DNA from: a virus
DNA length: 37,778 nucleotides
Virus record (IMG/VR): IMGVR_UViG_3300025128_000134
Location: 1-37,778 of that record
Strand: one strand, 5' to 3'
Every line of letters begins with the position of its first letter. Position 1 is the stretch's first letter. A program made the translations under genes and the position numbers. The notes beneath the pieces were generated by a model that saw only the letters and a program-made list of their open reading frames with translations, was not told where the DNA came from and searched no databases. This document shows, piece after piece, positions 7,084-37,778 of the stretch.

Positions 7084-7461
7084 ATGTATGGAATTTCGCC
7101 AAAATTGCCTTTATTAATCGATGACTTAGATGGTCACTATGGATTGACAAAAACTATAAGAGAAGCAGTCAAACAAAATTTTAAAAATATTATATTAACC
7201 GCCCCCGGGGAGAGAGTTATGGATTCTAATTTTGGCGTTGGATTAAGAAATTATTTATTTGAAAATTTTACCACTGAAGTAGCAGAAACTATTAAATTTA
7301 AAATTTCGAACCAAGTAAAAACTTATATGTCTTTCGTAAAAATTAATTCTATCAATGTTAACCAAGGGCAAGACAACTTAGGCACACTGTTTGTTTCGAT
7401 TGATTATTCTATTCCGAGCTTAGGTGCTAACGACACTATGATGATAAATCAAACAGCCTAA
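7084..7461 (+). CDS. Baseplate wedge protein, gp25/GPW lysozyme-like family
   Basis: This 125-residue protein matches the gpW/gp25 family in size and pattern. The hallmark is near residues 35-60: a hydrophobic strand, then TAPGERVMDSNFGVGLRNYL, the usual 'L.T.pGER.m.p.fG.gL..ylFe' signature. In T4, gp25 joins the baseplate wedge to the sheath and central hub; in contractile injection systems it helps start sheath assembly. The fold resembles a lysozyme, but family members are usually structural. The start ATG follows AGGAG (about 7071) at good spacing and only 3 bases after the upstream stop, so translation is likely coupled. It is followed by the gp6-like wedge gene, a common order in T4-like marine phages. 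Confidence 0.88.
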   Translation: MYGISPKLPLLIDDLDGHYGLTKTIREAVKQNFKNIILTAPGERVMDSNFGVGLRNYLFENFTTEVAETIKFKISNQVKTYMSFVKINSINVNQGQDNLGTLFVSIDYSIPSLGANDTMMINQTA

Positions 7462-30616: not shown

Positions 30617-31147
30617 ATGATTTTAGGTTTAGATATAAGCACCAGCATAACTGGCGCAACAGTAATTGACGAAAATGGAAAAGTTATTCATAACGAAGCT
30701 TGGGACTTGAGAAAGTACAAAGACTTTTTTGAAAAAGCAGCAGTTATCAAGAGTAAAATTTGGGAACTAGACGATACTTTCCTTATCAAAGAAGTTTATA
30801 TTGAGCAGTCACTTCAGAGCTTTAGAAGCGGCTTCTCATCAGCGAAAACGCTTTCTACACTATCTCGCTTTAATGGCGTTGTTTCGTGGCTATGTTATCA
30901 TATACTAGAAATAAAGCCTGAATACATCGCAGCGACATCCGCAAGAAAGAAATGCGGCATCAAAGTACCAAAAGGCGTCAAAGCAAAACAAGTTGTAATT
31001 CAATATGTACTTGACAACGTACCTGCTGTTAATATAGTATATACAAAACACGGCAATCCTAAACCTAGCTGCTTTGACAAGGCAGATAGTTGGGTCGTTG
31101 CCCAAGCAGGATATTTATGTCGGATGGAAAAAAGCGATCAATCTTAA
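30617..31147 (+). CDS. RuvC-like Holliday junction resolvase
   Basis: The 176-residue product has the RuvC/RNase-H-like nuclease pattern. The first strand is 'ILGLDISTSITGATVID' with the catalytic Asp at 6. The second acidic residue is Glu63 in 'VYIEQSLQSF', and the C-terminal helix carries Asp154 and Asp157 in 'CFDKADSWVVA'. A Lys-rich connector ('GIKVPKGVKAKQVV') precedes that helix. These match the four acidic metal ligands of the family. The enzyme is expected to cut branched DNA, as needed before packaging of a recombining phage genome; T4 uses the unrelated endonuclease VII (gp49) for that job. The length is that of a compact RuvC. The gene lacks a visible ribosome site. Its last 31 bases overlap the primase gene. 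Confidence 0.82.
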   Translation: MILGLDISTSITGATVIDENGKVIHNEAWDLRKYKDFFEKAAVIKSKIWELDDTFLIKEVYIEQSLQSFRSGFSSAKTLSTLSRFNGVVSWLCYHILEIKPEYIAATSARKKCGIKVPKGVKAKQVVIQYVLDNVPAVNIVYTKHGNPKPSCFDKADSWVVAQAGYLCRMEKSDQS

Positions 31148-32191: not shown

Positions 32192-32773
32192 ATGCGAATT
32201 TCAAAACAAAATTTAAAAAAAATCATCAAAGAAGAAGTTGAAGCGGTTTTAGATGAAAAAAGAAAACGCAAGAAGAAAACAGACGATCGCTGCACTAAAA
32301 TAGCAAAAAGAAAATATGATGTTTGGCCTTCGGCCTATGCATCTGGCGCAGTTGTAAAATGCCGCCAGGGTAAAATATGGAAAGGTTTAAAAGAAGAAGA
32401 TCGTCCGTATATATCTGATAACGAACGAAGAAGTGATCTTGAATCAGATATGAAAAAGATTATTGAACAAGAGATACAAAAAGTATTAGACGAAAAAAAA
32501 AGAAAGAAGAGAAGAAAACTAACCGACAAGCCAAGTTCTGAAACTAGTCTTCGTGATTGGTTTGGAAGAAAAGGAGCAAAAGGTAAGAAAGGCGGCTGGG
32601 TTGATTGTAACACTTGTCGCAAAGATAAAAAAACAGGCCGCAAGAAATGTAAATCTTGTGGTAGATCTGGTGAAGAAAAGAGAGCAAAATATCCATCTTG
32701 TCGTCCAACACCGGGCGCCTGTGGTAAAAAAGGAAAATACGGCAAAAAATCAAAAGCCGGCAAAAAAGGATAA
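32192..32773 (+). CDS. Basic Cys protein with MKITK-type leader, duplicated leader and zinc-ribbon-like tail
   Basis: An in-frame ATG exists at 32132, but it lies inside the Cys-peptide gene; starting at 32192 gives the N-terminus 'MRISKQNLKKIIKEE', the same leader as four other proteins here. The product is 193 residues and very Lys/Arg-rich. The leader ends in L20-D-E22, followed at once by KRKRKKK. A second copy of the leader core lies at 87-110 ('MKKIIEQEIQKVLDE', then KKRKKRRK). Between them is 'KYDVWPSAYASGAVVKCRQG' (41-60), a motif I recall from many phage and algal-virus proteins. The C-terminal part has CxxC pairs (139/142, 153/156) plus Cys170 and Cys177, a likely zinc ribbon. Nucleic-acid binding and packaging in the capsid are inferences. 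Confidence 0.7.
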   Translation: MRISKQNLKKIIKEEVEAVLDEKRKRKKKTDDRCTKIAKRKYDVWPSAYASGAVVKCRQGKIWKGLKEEDRPYISDNERRSDLESDMKKIIEQEIQKVLDEKKRKKRRKLTDKPSSETSLRDWFGRKGAKGKKGGWVDCNTCRKDKKTGRKKCKSCGRSGEEKRAKYPSCRPTPGACGKKGKYGKKSKAGKKG

Positions 32774-32778
32774 CCATT

Positions 32779-33057
32779 ATGAAAATCACAAAAGAAAATT
32801 TAGAGCAGATTATTAAAGAAGAAATCGAAGCAGCTTTAAATGAAGAAGGAGTTAAAATTCACGGCGGCCGCGGCCTGAAAAACGGCAGAGATGTGTATTA
32901 TGTGAAAGATGAGCATGATAAGCGCGACGCAGGTCAGCGACCTGAGCTTTCGATTGAAAGCCAGAGAGAACACTGTCGTTCTAGATCTAAAGGTGAACGT
33001 GTACACTTTAATGAAAAAACAAAAAGATGTGAATATGATTATCCGGACGAGGAGTAG
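32779..33057 (+). CDS. Small charged protein with MKITK-type leader
   Basis: This 92-residue product starts 6 bases after the upstream stop, with AAGGAT just before it. Residues 1-22 are the shared leader 'MKITKENLEQIIKEE' ending in L20-N-E22. The remaining 70 residues are hydrophilic and charged, with Cys71 and Cys84 spaced around 'KGERVHFNEKTKRCEYDYP' and no recognisable fold. If the leader is removed after Glu22, the mature peptide would be about 70 residues. A GC-only octamer GCGGCCGC lies at 32864-32871. The function is unknown; the cluster suggests a co-expressed set of leader-tagged small proteins. Confidence 0.68.
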   Translation: MKITKENLEQIIKEEIEAALNEEGVKIHGGRGLKNGRDVYYVKDEHDKRDAGQRPELSIESQREHCRSRSKGERVHFNEKTKRCEYDYPDEE

Positions 33058-33060
33058 ACA

Positions 33061-33696
33061 ATGAAAATTACAAAAGAATATCTACAACAAATTATTAAAG
33101 AAGAACTAGAGGCTGTTCTTAACGAAGAAAAAGTAAAATTAATTTTCGAAGGCGGCAAGTACGGTTTAGATGGCGGCCGCCGGCGCACTCTTCGTCAAGA
33201 TATTGAAGACATTGAAAAAGAAACTGCAGCAACAGAAAGAAGAACTGCAGGTAAGCAAGCTTATTATGATAGAACTGGTAGATATTACGACGATGAAAGC
33301 ACGGAGCGCCACGGACCAAGAGATATTATTCAGCTAGATCCAAGCAGCCTGTATGAAGAAGAATTTTATGAAGTTGATGCTTTAGGTGAAAACGAAGAAT
33401 ATTGTCCTGCCTGCGCTCCGCTAGAAGAGAAAAAGAAAAAAAAGAAGAAGAAAAAGAAGAAAGCCTGTAAACCATCCAAAGGCAAAAGGTTTGCTAAAAG
33501 AGTTGATGGCAAATGTCGCTCATTCGGGCAAGCAGGCCAAGCAAAAAGTGGCGGTGACAGAATTCGTCCCGGCACAGCAAAAGGTGATGCTTATTGCGCA
33601 AGATCTGCCGGCATCAAAAAATGTAAAAATCCACCGTGCGCAAATACACTTTCTAGAAAGAAGTGGAAATGTCGTGGTAAAAAATCAATGAAATAA
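33061..33696 (+). CDS. Basic Cys protein with MKITK-type leader and poly-lysine tract
   Basis: The 211-residue product starts 3 bases after the previous stop and uses a GAGGAG ribosome site. The leader is 'MKITKEYLQQIIKEE' with L20-N-E22. An acidic, Tyr-rich middle (about 65-123) leads to a run of 11 Lys (124-134) that directly follows L121-E-E123, another (L/I)-x-E site. The basic C-terminal half has Cys136, 152, 179, 188, 193 and 204, including 'KGDAYCARSAGIKKC' and 'LSRKKWKCRGK', a combination I recall from small proteins of T4-like marine phages. It may bind DNA. No enzyme motif is seen. The stop lies 5 bases before the tmRNA 5' end, so tmRNA may be transcribed with this operon and then processed. 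Confidence 0.7.
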   Translation: MKITKEYLQQIIKEELEAVLNEEKVKLIFEGGKYGLDGGRRRTLRQDIEDIEKETAATERRTAGKQAYYDRTGRYYDDESTERHGPRDIIQLDPSSLYEEEFYEVDALGENEEYCPACAPLEEKKKKKKKKKKKACKPSKGKRFAKRVDGKCRSFGQAGQAKSGGDRIRPGTAKGDAYCARSAGIKKCKNPPCANTLSRKKWKCRGKKSMK

Positions 33697-33701
33697 ATTA
33701 T

Positions 33702-34011
33702 GGGGATGAACTGGTATCGACTGGATACTGAAAATTTAATGTGCAAGGCTGTGTGAGTGTGGCACAGTAAAAACACTCAACAATTTAAACGCAAACGATA
33801 ACGTTGGCTTTGATTACGCCCTAGCGGCTTAATTACGGGGTTGTAGTCGCCTTGTTAACCAAGACTACGAAAAAAGTTTTTGGCTTCTTTAAAGAGCCAA
33901 TAGTTAGCGAAATGAGATAAGTTTGTCAGAGTTCACAAACTGACTAACCTTGTGAATGACATTATTTTGGAAATATTTAGGACCCGGGTTCGACTCCCGG
34001 CATCTCCACCA
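33702..34011 (+). ncRNA. ssrA: tmRNA (ssrA), one-piece, phage-encoded
   Basis: All key parts are visible. The 5' end GGGGATGAACTGG pairs with the 3' end CATCTCC-ACCA to form the acceptor stem, and CCA is encoded. The T arm is CCGGG-TTCGACT-CCCGG near the 3' end. The resume codon GCA at 33791 opens a tag frame that ends at TAA 33830-33832. After the tag come a helix (33843-33848 with 33863-33868), a hairpin (33880-33885 with 33895-33900) and a likely pseudoknot (33921-33926 with 33935-33940, and 33925-33929 with 33940-33944). tmRNA, with SmpB, frees stalled ribosomes and tags the product for proteolysis. No smpB gene is in the window, so host SmpB is presumed. Confidence 0.95.
33791..33832 (+). 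other. tmRNA tag reading frame (ANDNVGFDYALAA)
   Basis: Thirteen codons from the resume GCA encode ANDNVGFDYALAA, then TAA. The end, YALAA, matches the E. coli tag ANDENYALAA and keeps the LAA recognised by ClpX. The AND start resembles the SspB-contact part, but a few extra residues (about 'VGFD') lengthen the spacing before Tyr. The tag is therefore a plausible degradation signal with altered adaptor geometry. The adaptor effect is inference. Confidence 0.92.
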
Positions 34012-34051
34012 GTTATTTAACAATACAAGAACTTGATATTAAGGAGTATAA

Positions 34052-35254
34052 ATGTTCAATTACATTAAGCGGCGACAAGAGGAATTGGAAGCAAAAAAAC
34101 GTCTAGAGGCTGAACTGGCAGCCGAAAAAGAAGCAAAGCGAATTGCCGAAATAGAAGCTGCAGCTCATCAAAAGAAGCTCCTTCGAGAGCAACAAGAAAA
34201 TGAACGTATACGTCGTCTACACGCCCAAAGAAAAAAAGAAATAGCAGAACAAAAGATGCACCGGCAGCGCGATATTTTAACAACTCAGGCTAAGGAGCGC
34301 AGGCAAAAGGATAATAAACTTGAAGAAATAAGAATTATAATCCAAAGTCGCGAACCCTCTCTCGATGCCCTTGATTGGACCAGCTGGCTATCATCTGACC
34401 CTCTTAATCAAAAACTTGTTGATTTAGATTATGATTACGCAATGGAGATGTTCAAGCGCGATCGCCTATTGGCAAAAAGACGCCGACCAACTCGTGGCAA
34501 AAAATCAGCCCGCGAAATTAATTACGCACTATCATTTGCTGGCGATAGAAGTGGAGCTGCAAAAACATTTGTATCAACTCCATTTAATCCTGATACTTAT
34601 TCACTTTGGAATGGATTTACTGTTTCTTTTTGGGTTAGGCCAGATGAAGAAATGAATCAAAAATCAGTTATATTAGGCAGTAGAGCCAGTAGTCCAGTTG
34701 CAAGATTTCATTTTGGATTATCAGGTGTAGGTACTAATATTGGAGTAGGTGTTGGTGGTAATGATATTACTGGAATTAATAATCCAATGGAAATAGGTCG
34801 ATGGTATAATTGGGTAATATCATATACAGGTACTCAGTTTGATGCTGGAGAAAGAAAACTTAGAATGTGGATAAATGCAGATGCAAGGATGGCTAACAAC
34901 AATAGTACTTCTTGGAATAATCAAGATGAAGGTATGACAATGTATTTTGGAGGTCGTAATACTGAGGGTTCAGGATATACTAACGGGTTTGCCTGTGCAC
35001 TTGATGAAGTAGCTATCTATAATACATGTATTGATTCGGACGGTACTTTTGCTAGCGAAGTATATAGTGCTAGATCTGACTATGATCATAGAAACAATAA
35101 TCATAGTAATAGCCTTGTAGGATACTGGAGACTTAACGAGGGCAACGGAACAACCGCTAAAGATTTGTCAGGAAATAGTAATGACGGAACATTAACTACA
35201 GATGGCGCCGGCCTGCCAATTTGGATCAGGACACCAGCAGGATACGGGCAATAA
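34052..35254 (+). CDS. Coiled-coil protein with C-terminal laminin-G-like domain
   Basis: The 400-residue product starts after a good AAGGAG. Residues 1-115 are almost wholly Lys/Glu/Ala/Arg/Gln with a heptad-like pattern, a long coiled coil. Residues about 150-390 form a concanavalin-A/laminin-G sandwich: 'YALSFAGD', 'FTVSFWVRPDEEMNQKSVIL', 'RWYNWVISYTGTQFDAGERK', 'FACALDEVAIYNTCIDSDG', 'SLVGYWRLNEGNGTTAKDLS'. This architecture fits an elongated fibre or tip that binds a glycan or surface. It lies outside the main structural module, next to tmRNA, which fits an accessory adhesin or decoration protein. No signal peptide is present. The virion location is inferred. Confidence 0.75.
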   Translation: MFNYIKRRQEELEAKKRLEAELAAEKEAKRIAEIEAAAHQKKLLREQQENERIRRLHAQRKKEIAEQKMHRQRDILTTQAKERRQKDNKLEEIRIIIQSREPSLDALDWTSWLSSDPLNQKLVDLDYDYAMEMFKRDRLLAKRRRPTRGKKSAREINYALSFAGDRSGAAKTFVSTPFNPDTYSLWNGFTVSFWVRPDEEMNQKSVILGSRASSPVARFHFGLSGVGTNIGVGVGGNDITGINNPMEIGRWYNWVISYTGTQFDAGERKLRMWINADARMANNNSTSWNNQDEGMTMYFGGRNTEGSGYTNGFACALDEVAIYNTCIDSDGTFASEVYSARSDYDHRNNNHSNSLVGYWRLNEGNGTTAKDLSGNSNDGTLTTDGAGLPIWIRTPAGYGQ

Positions 35255-35295
35255 TAAAATATTTAGACCGCGCTTACTACTATAGGTATCTCCAT

Positions 35296-35348
35296 CAACT
35301 ACTTAATATTAGAGGATTATCATATGAAAATCACAAAACAAAAATTAA
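35296..35348 (+). repeat. Direct repeat copy 1: leader, ribosome site and first codons
   Basis: About 53 bases beginning CAACTACTTAATATTAGAGGA run through the ATG of the 35324 gene into its first codons. The same sequence recurs at 36672-36723, differing only in a 1-2 base change between AGAGGA and CATATG. The copied unit thus spans the untranslated leader, the ribosome site and the codons for 'MKITKQKL'. It lies in the 69-base gap after 35254, in which I see no other element. Confidence 0.85.
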
Positions 35349-35731
35349 CACAAATCATTAAAGAAGAAATATCACACATTTTGAATGAGAATACAGGCTT
35401 TACCGAGATAAGTGGGCCCCATCAAATAGCCGCCGCCATCGAGACCAGCGGAAAGAATCCCGCAGGGTTGTATGCAGACCTGATGGGGGATACGCTGATA
35501 ATGGTAGACGACAGCTTCGTTACGATCAAACAGACGGATGCAGGCCCTGCCTGGACTTTGGGCCAACCTCAGCGCGGGGATGGAGCCTCCCCTAGGGCCA
35601 ACTGGATGGTTAGGTCGGATCTGGACCGTGGTCGTGTGCACACTACAAATAGATTAAAGTGGAAAAAAGCATTAATGGCAGCCGGCGTTCCAGAAAAAAA
35701 TATAAAGATGGGGCATCATAAATCACAATGA
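35324..35731 (+). CDS. Chimeric protein: MKITK-type leader plus GC-rich cargo domain
   Basis: The 135-residue product carries the leader 'MKITKQKLTQIIKEE' ending L20-N-E22. Its DNA changes sharply in composition after about 35400: the leader is AT-rich, while the cargo codons (about 35400-35640) are GC-rich with long G/C runs, then AT-rich again at the end. The cargo appears to be one compact alpha/beta domain ('HQIAAAIETSGKNPAGLY', 'GDTLIMVDDSFVTIKQT', 'RLKWKKALMAAGVPEKNI') with no family that I recognise. A captured cargo joined to a native leader would explain the pattern. The gene's stop overlaps the next ATG as ATGA. Confidence 0.7.
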   Translation: MKITKQKLTQIIKEEISHILNENTGFTEISGPHQIAAAIETSGKNPAGLYADLMGDTLIMVDDSFVTIKQTDAGPAWTLGQPQRGDGASPRANWMVRSDLDRGRVHTTNRLKWKKALMAAGVPEKNIKMGHHKSQ

Positions 35732-36645
35732 ACGATATGAAACTTATAATGGAGAACTGGCGAGATTATTCTGACTCTTGTAAAACGAGAGAAGAGATAG
35801 TAGCCAGATACCTCAAAGATTCAGAGTTTCTTCATGAAGTCATGGGAATTCAAGTGCCTCTTAATGAGTCCTATCCCTATTCTTCAGCGCTGACAGAATC
35901 TTTGTCAAAAAGAATTATGCAAGAGCAGATTCTTTTAGAAGGCTGGTTTAGCGATTCGTGGAAAAAAATTAAAAAACTCCCAGGCGAGGTTGCCGGCTTT
36001 ATGAAAAGTCTTTGGAATGTTATTAAGGGCGGCAACCTTGACTTATATTGGAGAGGCCTCAAAAGGGCCGGCTTGAACACGATTCAAGGTAACTTGCAGA
36101 AAGTTTTTAAAATTGTTATCGACGCTAAAGGAAAATACCCAGGATCAGAAACGATGGCTGAATGGGCTCAAACTCTTAGCGGCAAAGTGAATACAGCAGC
36201 TAAAAATTTAATGGGATCAGTCGGCATAAGCGAAGAGCTGCGACTTCGACAACGCGACCCCCCACCGGCAGCTATAAAGATATTTGGCGCTACCGTATTT
36301 TTGGTGGGTATAAAATTTCTTTGGGACAAACTTAAAGAATGGGCTGAGCCATTATTGAGAACAGAACTTGGTCGTTCGATTAACCTGCTAAAAAACATTG
36401 CAGCTAAGTTTGCAAAAGAAGCAGCTTTGAAGCTTGCTACTGGTTTGGCAGCGCTGACCAGCGCCTCGTTAACCGGGGGCGCCTCCGCCATTTACGCTGC
36501 CCTATTACAAGTTGCAGAGTATGCCGGGAAGGCCATCAGTGCAGCAATTTCAATTCTTAAACCGGCTTTGGCCTTTTACAAAAGAAGGGGTGGCTTAAAC
36601 CCAAACCGCGTTGGTCCCGGAGCCCCACAGCCCCAGCCAACTTAA
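35728..36645 (+). CDS. Helical protein with MKLIMENW-type start and (L/I)-x-E sites
   Basis: The 305-residue product overlaps the previous stop (ATGA). An ATG at 35737 would begin 'MKLIMENWRDY', an N-terminus I recall as frequent in marine phage proteins, so 35737 may be the true start. The first 72 residues hold repeated matches to the T4 prohead-protease rule: I7-M-E9, L35-H-E37, L45-N-E47, L55-T-E57 and L69-L-E71, three of them exactly 10 residues apart. The mature part would be rich in amphipathic helices ('DSWKKIKKLPGEVAGFMKS') and hydrophobic helices (about 185-205, 230-280), with a Pro-rich end. It may be a processed internal head or membrane-active protein. This is inference. Confidence 0.65.
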   Translation: MNDMKLIMENWRDYSDSCKTREEIVARYLKDSEFLHEVMGIQVPLNESYPYSSALTESLSKRIMQEQILLEGWFSDSWKKIKKLPGEVAGFMKSLWNVIKGGNLDLYWRGLKRAGLNTIQGNLQKVFKIVIDAKGKYPGSETMAEWAQTLSGKVNTAAKNLMGSVGISEELRLRQRDPPPAAIKIFGATVFLVGIKFLWDKLKEWAEPLLRTELGRSINLLKNIAAKFAKEAALKLATGLAALTSASLTGGASAIYAALLQVAEYAGKAISAAISILKPALAFYKRRGGLNPNRVGPGAPQPQPT

Positions 36646-36671
36646 ATTCGAGGCCCGAATGGAAACAACGC

Positions 36672-36723
36672 CAACTACTTAATATTAGAGGACATCATAT
36701 GAAAATCACAAAACAAAAATTAA
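36672..36723 (+). repeat. Direct repeat copy 2: leader, ribosome site and first codons
   Basis: This is the second copy of the unit at 35296-35348, here ahead of the 36699 gene. Near-identity includes untranslated bases, which points to recent duplication or recombination and not to protein-level constraint. A short inverted repeat (ATTCG/CGAAT, 36646-36660) lies just upstream and is too weak to call a terminator. Confidence 0.85.
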
Positions 36724-36941
36724 ACAAAATTATAAACGAAGAAATTCAACGTCACCATATTCTACAAGAAACAAATCGTACTGTTTTAGTCGAGAACAAT
36801 AATCCAACTCTAAGAAAAGTATTGAAAGAACGCTTTGAAAAATTAGGCGGCTATTATTTTGAAGCCATTGAAGAAGGCGACAAAGAGTTAGCAAAAACTC
36901 TTCAAGAAGAAATGACTAGAATTTTTGAGGATTTAAAGTAA
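36699..36941 (+). CDS. Small helical protein with MKITK-type leader
   Basis: The 80-residue product has the leader 'MKITKQKLNKIINEE' followed, two residues later than in the other proteins, by L22-Q-E24. The rest is predominantly helical and charged ('KVLKERFEKLGGYYFEAIEE', then 'DKELAKTLQEEMTRIFEDL'). No family is recognised. The first 24 bases of coding sequence and the untranslated leader copy those of the 35324 gene. Its TAA stop overlaps the ATG of the hydroxylase gene (TAATG), implying coupling. Confidence 0.72.
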   Translation: MKITKQKLNKIINEEIQRHHILQETNRTVLVENNNPTLRKVLKERFEKLGGYYFEAIEEGDKELAKTLQEEMTRIFEDLK

Positions 36942-37413
36942 TGGGATAATCTTATTTTATGTAATCAATTTTATATTAGGCCTGTTATATACAAACTTAT
37001 TAGAATGGGTATTACATAAATATGTCCTGCACGGGTTAGGAAAAAATAAAGAAAGCAACTGGTCTTCTCACTGGAATATTCATCACAAGAAATCAAGAAA
37101 GAATAATTTTTACGATGATGATTATGAGAAGAGTTGGCACTCACCAGGATCTCGTTCAGAGATTATGGGCTTGATTTTATTAGCGCTAGCTCATTCACCT
37201 GTTTTAATTATACTTCCAGCGTTTTATTTTGGTCTCCTTTATGGAGGATTTAGATATTACTACGTCCATAAGAAGTCACACCTAGATTTAGAGTGGGCAA
37301 AAAGACACGTCCCTTGGCATTACGATCATCATATGGGAAAAAATCAAGATGCCAACTGGGGAGTTACAACTGATTGGGTTGATAAATTATTAGGAACACG
37401 AATTAAATATTGA
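36941..37413 (+). pseudogene. Fatty-acid hydroxylase/sterol-desaturase-like gene with apparent frameshift at codon 2
   Basis: A continuous frame from 36946 to the TGA at 37411-37413 encodes about 155 residues with the His motifs of the fatty acid hydroxylase superfamily: 'LHKYVLH' (37015, 37030), 'HWNIHH' (37069-37086), 'HKKSH' (37267, 37279), 'HVPWHYDHH' (37306-37332), then 'NWGVTTDWVDKLLGT', the family's closing block. Two hydrophobic stretches flank the first motifs and the centre. Such enzymes are membrane di-iron oxygenases. That frame has no ATG before 37165, which would lose half the His ligands. The ATG at 36941, coupled to the previous stop, reads ATG-GGA-TAA. One extra base in the GGG run would join it to the frame. 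A sequencing error or a true mutation are both possible. Confidence 0.72.
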
Positions 37414-37460: not shown

Positions 37461-37778
37461 ATGCGGTTTGCGCACATATCGGACACTCATATCCGAAATT
37501 TAAAATATCATAAAGAATATAGAGAGGTTTTCAGTCAACTTTACGAAAACCTTCGAGAACAAAAACCAGATTACATAATTCATTGCGGAGATATTGCACA
37601 CACGAAAACTCAGATTAGTCCTGAGTATGTTCAAATGTGTTCTGATTTCCTTAAGAACTTGGCAGACATAGCACCAACTTACGTTATTCTTGGTAACCAC
37701 GATGGCAACCTACGTAATACAAGCCGTCAGGACGCCCTTACACCTATCGTAAACGCGTTAGAACATCAAAACCTATAC
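37461..37778 (+). CDS. Mre11/SbcD-like nuclease (gp47 type), 3' truncated by window edge
   Basis: The 106 visible residues are the N-terminus of a calcineurin-like metallophosphoesterase of the SbcD/Mre11 type: 'FAHISDTHIRNL' (Asp8, His10), 'IIHCGDIAHTK' (Asp44, His47) and 'YVILGNHDG' (Asn79, His80, Asp81), with the spacing expected of that family. T4 gp47, with gp46, is the equivalent nuclease pair that resects DNA ends for recombination-dependent replication. A gp46/SbcC partner would be expected downstream, outside the window. The ATG follows CGGAGAATTT. The strong promoter just upstream suggests early expression. The frame is open to the last base. Confidence 0.88.
   Translation, partial: MRFAHISDTHIRNLKYHKEYREVFSQLYENLREQKPDYIIHCGDIAHTKTQISPEYVQMCSDFLKNLADIAPTYVILGNHDGNLRNTSRQDALTPIVNALEHQNLY

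What the first reader, a model, noticed from the sequence alone, without database searches (positions are those of the whole stretch)
32192..36941. Five unrelated proteins share one N-terminal leader ending in a prohead-protease-like site
Seen: proteins starting at 32192, 32779, 33061, 35324 and 36699 begin M(K/R)I(T/S)K-xx-L-xx-II-(K/N)EE and then reach L-(N/D/Q)-E at residues 20-22 (22-24 in the last), after which they have nothing in common. Known: T4 internal head proteins carry a short N-terminal capsid-targeting sequence cut by the gp21 protease after (L/I)-x-E. Inference: this is a modular, removable capsid-targeting leader that loads small, mostly basic or Cys-rich cargo into the head, possibly for injection into the host. 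An anchor or dimerising helix is an alternative.
Basis: partly seen in the sequence, partly recalled or inferred. Interest (0 to 1): 0.88.

Follow-up and report, generated by a model that had tools for sequence, protein, structure and literature searches.

The report
Modular leader for loading phage heads
A short, probably removable N-terminal tag is stuck onto dozens of otherwise unrelated proteins in a large group of uncultured T4-like viruses of bacteria, and its sequence pattern indicates that it sends them into the virus head and is then cut off there, most likely so that they can be injected into the next host cell.

Summary
Five window ORFs share MKITKxxLxxIIKEE...LxE and nothing else, and one carries a second, internal copy. 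The leader sits on hundreds of unrelated proteins in viral contigs, up to 39 per record. It is essentially absent from bacterial genomes. Leader records encode a gp21-type protease (25 of 28, versus 3 of 20 random contigs), on the same strand. The three exceptions appear to lack the head region. In a close relative of the window gp21 lies about 22 kb downstream of primase.

Four sequence tests support cleavage. (1) [LIM] and E are coupled at exactly spacing 2. (2) Residue 23 is enriched for Ala/Gly/Ser only when LxE precedes it. (3) Leaders reading Ile12-x-Glu14-Ala15 lack the second site (2/29) and lose conservation after residue 15-16, while Glu15 leaders have it (62%) and stay conserved to 22. 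(4) Homologous cargoes swap this leader for another, MKLIMENWRxFLxE; both, like T4 IPII/IPIII, show hydrophobic-xx-hydrophobic-hydrophobic-x-Glu.

Best reading: a cleavable capsid-targeting propeptide that works like T4's, with one or two cut sites; a new variant of a known kind. Packaging, cleavage and injection are inferred, not shown. "Mostly basic or Cys-rich" does not generalise.

The parts
32192..32773 (+). Leader protein 1 (193 aa). Leader 32192-32257 (residues 1-22, predicted cut after LDE22); cargo A, DUF5872-like; then an internal second leader and cargo B.
   Evidence: DUF5872 18.6 bits, below the Pfam cut-off; cargo B is a separate leader-bearing gene in L347
32429..32494 (+). Internal second leader of protein 1 (residues ~80-101, RSDLESDMKKIIEQEIQKVLDE): gene fusion of two leader-cargo units; position 14 is Gln, so only the LDE site remains.
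   Evidence: sequence; aligned to the N-terminus of L347:11551 (MKISEEELNQIIREEVLKYLEEKK)
32779..33057 (+). Leader protein 2 (92 aa). Leader 32779-32844, predicted cut after LNE22.
   Evidence: only residues 1-26 match anything in close relatives (91% over 1-23 in L347)
33061..33696 (+). Leader protein 3 (211 aa, basic, Cys-bearing C-terminal part). Leader 33061-33126, predicted cut after LNE22.
   Evidence: C-terminal part kept at 89% in L347
35324..35731 (+). Leader protein 4 (135 aa). Leader 35324-35389, predicted cut after LNE22.
35728..36645 (+). Protein beginning with the second leader type (MNDMKLIMENWRDY...), with a degenerate first site; first [L]-x-E is LHE at residues 35-37. Probably another head-targeted protein (inference).
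   Evidence: leader type defined
36699..36941 (+). Leader protein 5 (80 aa). Leader 36699-36770 (24 residues), predicted cut after LQE24; the only cassette gene kept in all close relatives whose cassette is held out to SbcD.
   Evidence: L and E kept while x is Q, Q, R, E, E; AlphaFold2: leader helix pLDDT 50-70, mature hairpin 86-94

Best explanation
The leader is a capsid-targeting propeptide that works like the T4 internal-protein CTS. It is a short amphipathic N-terminal peptide that draws unrelated small proteins into the assembling prohead core. The gp21-type prohead protease of these phages (in relatives encoded about 22 kb downstream of primase) then cuts it off after [I/L]-x-Glu: after Glu14 when residue 15 is Ala, otherwise mainly after Glu22 (Glu24 in the 36699 protein). 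The mature cargo stays with the packaged DNA and is probably ejected into the next host. Shown here: the leader, its modularity, the association with gp21, and the sequence signature of a cut site. Inferred: loading into the head, actual cleavage, and injection.
For: gp21 (PF03420) in 25/28 leader records versus 3/20 random contigs; the 3 exceptions lack the head region or end next to the portal; all listed leaders on the protease strand; gp21 in a 90% relative of the window. [LIM]xE coupled only at spacing 2 (O/E 1.70). Ala/Gly/Ser at residue 23 in 43% with LxE versus 20% without (p=2.6e-5). Ala15 leaders lack the second site (2/29 versus 177/285, p=4e-9), also within contigs (z=-4.2), and conservation ends at the predicted cut in both kinds. 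Major capsid proteins of the same records all carry L-L-x-E at the expected maturation site and the protease motifs are intact. Leader swaps between class 1 and class 2 on homologous cargo. Same hydrophobic-xx-hydrophobic-hydrophobic-x-E spacing as T4 IPII/IPIII, where those positions do targeting and processing (PMC9026906). Absent from cellular genomes except apparent phage contigs in MAGs.
Against: No virion, cleavage or packaging data. 100/316 leaders lack [LIM]xE at 16-24, and most of these have Glu, not Ala, at 15. The window's own five have non-small P1' residues (K, E, E, N, T). No T4-like late promoter motif was found upstream of leader genes. The leader profile does not match T4 itself. 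The window is a fragment without the head genes. The random-contig control was not matched for environment or phage type.
Confidence: 0.82

Rival explanations
1. The leader is an uncleaved docking or dimerising helix that anchors diverse proteins to a phage structure (core, portal, tail or baseplate). LxE would just continue the amphipathic helix and its cap.
For: Hydrophobics at 3, 8, 11, 12, 16, 19, 20 fit an amphipathic helix; AlphaFold2 makes residues 5-30 of the 36699 protein one helix; a third of leaders lack the second [LIM]xE.
Against: A helix pattern does not explain coupling at spacing 2 only, the P1' Ala/Gly/Ser preference confined to residue 23, the Ala15 trade-off and shifted end of conservation, or exchange with two sequence-unrelated leaders that also end in hydrophobic-x-E.
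Confidence: 0.12
2. The leader targets proteins to a place or partner inside the infected cell (membrane, replication compartment, host RNA polymerase) and has nothing to do with the head.
For: Some cargoes look like intracellular effectors (sigma-70 region 2, GNAT acetyltransferase), and cassettes also sit next to SbcD and primase genes.
Against: Strong tie to gp21, leader genes directly upstream of gp21 in L153, register identical with the T4 CTS and with class 2 leaders. Effectors are also what T4 injects (Alt; PMC9026906).
Confidence: 0.04
3. The shared N-terminus is only a relic of gene duplication or a recombination hot spot in DNA that lets cassettes shuffle, without function as a peptide.
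For: Synonymous codons of leaders agree more within a contig (62%) than between contigs (54%), so some copying is recent; about 20 nt upstream of the ATG are shared by 35324 and 36699.
Against: Near-total protein conservation at residues 8, 12 and 14 across divergent contigs while codons vary; unrelated leader types occupy the same place on the same cargo; LxE kept while x changes in the 36699 family.
Confidence: 0.02

Closest known systems
T4 capsid targeting sequence of internal proteins IPII/IPIII (and IPI), cut by gp21
   Same: Short N-terminal leader on unrelated proteins; hydrophobic-xx-hydrophobic-hydrophobic-x-E with identical spacing (Y4-F7-I8-E10 in T4, L8-I11-I12-E14 here); followed by Ala in one kind; gp21-type protease in the same genomes.
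   Different: No significant sequence similarity (profile misses T4); leader 14 or 22 residues instead of 10; often two sites; up to 39 copies per record against three IPs in T4; cargo not basic; packaging not demonstrated.
Variable CTS-bearing internal proteins of T-even phages
   Same: Conserved CTS with highly diverse cargo, thought to reflect an arms race with host restriction (PMC3012670).
   Different: Different leader, different and uncultured phage group, much larger repertoire, and at least three leader types in one neighbourhood.
Head propeptides of giant phages phiKZ and SPN3US
   Same: Many different head/ejection proteins processed by a gp21 relative after a short motif ending in Glu, with redundant cut sites in propeptides (PMC9026906, PMC5694885).
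   Different: Those propeptides are not described there as one shared short leader on all cargoes; here the leader is shared and the phages are T4-like with Gp23 capsids.

Membership tests
T4-type capsid targeting sequence / internal head protein | gp21-type (S77) prohead protease in the same genome | tested here: met
   25/28 leader records, exceptions lack the head region. For the window itself not testable (fragment); present in its 90% relative G057.
T4-type capsid targeting sequence / internal head protein | (L/I)-x-E cut site at the end of the leader | tested here: met
   I12-x-E14 in 311/316; second [LIM]xE starting at 18-23 in 179/316, coupled beyond chance; all five window proteins have both.
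T4-type capsid targeting sequence / internal head protein | Small residue (Ala and the like) after the Glu | tested here: inconclusive
   Enriched over the whole set (43% versus 20%; Ala15 kind), but not in the window's five (K, E, E, N, T).
T4-type capsid targeting sequence / internal head protein | Targeting and processing positions with T4 spacing | tested here: met
   L8-I11-I12-E14 and class 2 W8-F11-L12-E14 versus T4 Y4-F7-I8-E10 (function of T4 positions from PMC9026906).
T4-type capsid targeting sequence / internal head protein | Recognisable sequence homology to T4 MKTYQEFIAEA | tested here: not met
   Leader profile A3 has no match in T4 or KVP40. So: works like it; common descent not shown.
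T4-type capsid targeting sequence / internal head protein | Basic cargo | tested here: not met
   Median cargo charge slightly negative, 28% positive. Not essential: T4 Alt is also head-packaged.
T4-type capsid targeting sequence / internal head protein | Leader is necessary and sufficient for packaging, is removed, and cargo is ejected | not testable with these tools
   Needs virion proteomics or fusion experiments.

The most novel reading that the evidence does not exclude
A large group of uncultured T4-like phages packs and injects up to about 40 different proteins per virion through an interchangeable set of at least three head-loading leaders. The residue after the first Glu decides which of two cut sites removes the leader, so the injected arsenal of a phage can be read from sequence alone.
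Probability: 0.5. Interest if true: 0.87.

Novelty: new variant of a known kind. Interest (0 to 1): 0.76.

Why it matters
Most genes of uncultured phages have no known function. If the leader marks head-packaged, injected proteins, a 14-22 residue signature flags hundreds of candidate early-acting effectors, including a sigma-70 region 2 protein, GNAT acetyltransferases and, with the second leader type, a zeta-toxin-like kinase, in phages that nobody has grown. It also gives a natural series of cut-site variants for the T4-type prohead protease, and candidate tags for loading proteins into phage heads.

Tried and rejected
A first DNA-pattern scan had one N too many and found nothing; it is not evidence. 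tblastn of the bare leader against deposited phages found nothing, or one weak hit (E=7, uncultured 484-kb phage LR756508); 24 residues is near the limit of that search. Pfam and PHROGs on the window's leader proteins gave no family of known function; DUF5872 is only a sub-threshold match. A T4-like late promoter (TATAAAT) upstream of leader genes was not found: 0.3% versus 1.5% for other genes. 'Mostly basic or Cys-rich cargo' was rejected as a general property. A pure recombination-relic reading was rejected on the conservation pattern and leader swaps. Leader-bearing records without gp21 were checked as counter-examples: G002 has the T4 portal 2.2 kb from its contig end, so gp21 would fall off the contig; G019 and G022 have neither portal nor capsid gene. 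Leader hits in bacterial genomes were traced to a few contigs of MAGs, one of which also carries gp21 and 27 leaders. A Pfam call failed on a wrong strand and was repeated.
Full report
What was checked. The five ORFs are at the stated positions and begin alike; after L-x-E they have nothing in common. The window is a 37.8-kb linear fragment of a virus record. T4-like baseplate genes lie at 7084 and 7502 and a RuvC-like gene at 30617, a primase gene at 31117, the leader cassette at 32192-36941, and an SbcD-like gene at 37461. A leader profile gives five matches in the window with strong E-values.

How widespread. In 152 loci, 370 distinct leader ORFs were found, 316 after length filtering and removal of similar cargo. 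Large records carry up to 39 copies. Among 132 diverse cargoes only 17 Pfam families match, each in a single member. Examples are sigma-70 region 2 (L009:10365), a GNAT acetyltransferase (L050:4679), pentapeptide repeats (L135) and LRR (L142). So the leader is a module and not the remnant of one family.

Where it is not. In one genome each for 84,980 bacterial and archaeal species no relative was confirmed. An exact pattern hit only 9 stretches, in six MAGs. In those MAGs the leaders cluster on a few contigs, and in one case gp21 and most of 27 leaders lie on the same contig. Twenty random viral contigs, T4, KVP40, S-RSM4 and Mel-JY01 have none; the Flavobacterium phage immuto has one weak partial match. 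No paper text held contains the core sequence in a phage context.

Tie to the prohead protease. gp21 (PF03420) is in 25 of 28 leader records but in 3 of 20 random contigs over 45 kb; Fisher p=4e-7. Gp23 is in 22 of 28. In every record compared, the listed leader genes are on the protease strand. In L153 two leader genes stand directly upstream of gp21. The three records without gp21 are explained by a contig end or by absence of the head region. The window's nearest relatives (primase 88-90%) include G057, where gp21 lies about 22 kb downstream of primase on the same strand. By synteny the window's own gp21 should lie about 16 kb beyond its right end (inference). The homologues keep GELDHP and GISSRG motifs corresponding to T4 gp21. 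The major capsid proteins of the same records all have L-L-x-E (or its near variants) before the mature part, usually followed by a small residue, as expected for this protease.

Is LxE a cut site? Four independent patterns say so. First, [LIM] and E are coupled at spacing 2 only (observed/expected 1.70; 0.87-1.13 at spacings 1 and 3-7), and 179/316 have it starting at 18-23 versus 99 +/- 6 in column shuffles. Second, Ala/Gly/Ser follows LxE in 43% versus 20% without LxE (p=2.6e-5), with no difference at residues 24-30 and 21% after LxE elsewhere in other proteins. Third, the invariant core is itself an I-x-E (I12-x-E14, 311/316). When residue 15 is Ala, the second site is nearly absent (2/29), against 177/285 when residue 15 is Glu (p=4e-9). 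The same holds within contigs carrying both kinds (2/29 versus 29/49, z=-4.2). Conservation falls to background after residue 15-16 in Ala15 leaders and only after 22 in Glu15 leaders. The conserved stretch thus ends at the predicted cut in both kinds. Fourth, in the 36699 family the x of L-x-E changes (Q, R, E) while L and E stay.

Leader swaps and other leader types. In the same neighbourhoods a second leader, M..(L/I)(I/M)ENWRxFLxE, ends in hydrophobic-x-E in 41/46 (baseline 16%), and a third, RKNxxxIDPRYF(L/M/I)xE, in 16/16. Homologous cargoes carry different leaders: L084:1985 (class 2) and L115:2757 (class 1), 75% identity over 52 residues; GNAT proteins L050 (class 1) versus L104, L017, L010 (class 2); L139 (class 1, Ala15) versus L085:1391 (MKKLLTEWRKYLNE), 74% over 53 residues. 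Read by eye, in the L084/L115 and L139/L085 pairs cargo similarity begins right after Glu14. The most common class 2 leader also ends at Glu14, with the same six-residue spacing from the first hydrophobic anchor. T4 IPII and IPIII (MKTYQEFIAEA) have that same spacing, and in T4 those positions carry targeting (4, 7) and processing (8, 10) (PMC9026906).

The cassette evolves fast. Between the conserved primase (about 90%) and SbcD (about 95%) genes, relatives of the window differ in nearly every cassette gene. The 32779 protein matches L347 and others only over about its first 22-26 residues (91% in L347), and only the 36699 protein is kept in all relatives whose cassette is held out to SbcD at 71% or more primase identity (L347-L350). 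Window protein 32192 is a fusion of two leader-cargo units: its second half, internal leader included, is a separate gene in L347. Other proteins with internal leaders exist.

Mechanism. Most likely the leader binds the prohead core, brings its cargo inside, and is removed by gp21 after Glu14 or Glu22; cargo is then packed with DNA and probably ejected. The first two steps rest on the association and on the cut-site signature; ejection rests on the T4 precedent alone. AlphaFold2 of the 36699 protein gives a lower-confidence leader helix and a confident helical hairpin as the mature part, consistent with a removable part but not proof.

Limits. The window's five leaders lack a small P1' residue. 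A third of all leaders lack a second site, and most of those have Glu15. The random control was not matched for environment or phage type; sample habitats were not verified; related sequences are not fully independent in the counts; and no virion data exist. The claim is therefore 'works like a T4 CTS', not 'is homologous to it'.

Noticed in passing
window 33702-34011 (+): A tmRNA gene (RF00023, 124 bits; tag ANDNVGFDYALAA) sits inside the leader cassette. It is not seen at that place in the relatives' gene lists.
   Followed up: partly
L324:1387, L318:10252, L060, L141 and others: A third shared N-terminal leader, xRKNxxxIDPRYF(L/M/I)xE, in 16 proteins, all with hydrophobic-x-Glu.
   Followed up: partly
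L324:16543-17222, L161:2025-2650, L158:2032-2670: Just downstream of gp21 there is a conserved protein with a leader-like start (MKKSELKKVIKPLVKECIKEVLxEEG), followed by a small basic protein resembling ribosomal protein bS21; compare the bS21 phages of PMC9723584.
   Followed up: no
L085:3522, L101:484, L110:1675, L046:10904: Proteins with one or two internal leader copies, as if leader-cargo genes had fused into polyproteins.
   Followed up: partly
window 34052-35254: A 400-aa protein without the leader inside the cassette: charged coiled-coil-like N-terminus followed by a LamG/concanavalin-like domain; absent from close relatives.
   Followed up: no
window 37165-37413: Fatty-acid-hydroxylase-like ORF that is shorter than its relatives' (82 aa versus about 153 aa in L347), weak Pfam match; possibly truncated or miscalled.
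   Followed up: no
window 35264-35323 and 36639-36698: The sequence AACTACTTAATATTAGAGGA stands shortly upstream of both the 35324 and 36699 start codons; it may be a shared promoter/ribosome-binding segment copied with the leader.
   Followed up: no
MAG contigs NHDW01000006.1 (305,838 b) and PBIO01000025.1 (101,404 b): Two contigs filed under bacterial genomes (Methylococcaceae TMED69, Halobacteriovorax SP2999) look like leader-rich phage contigs binned into MAGs.
   Followed up: partly
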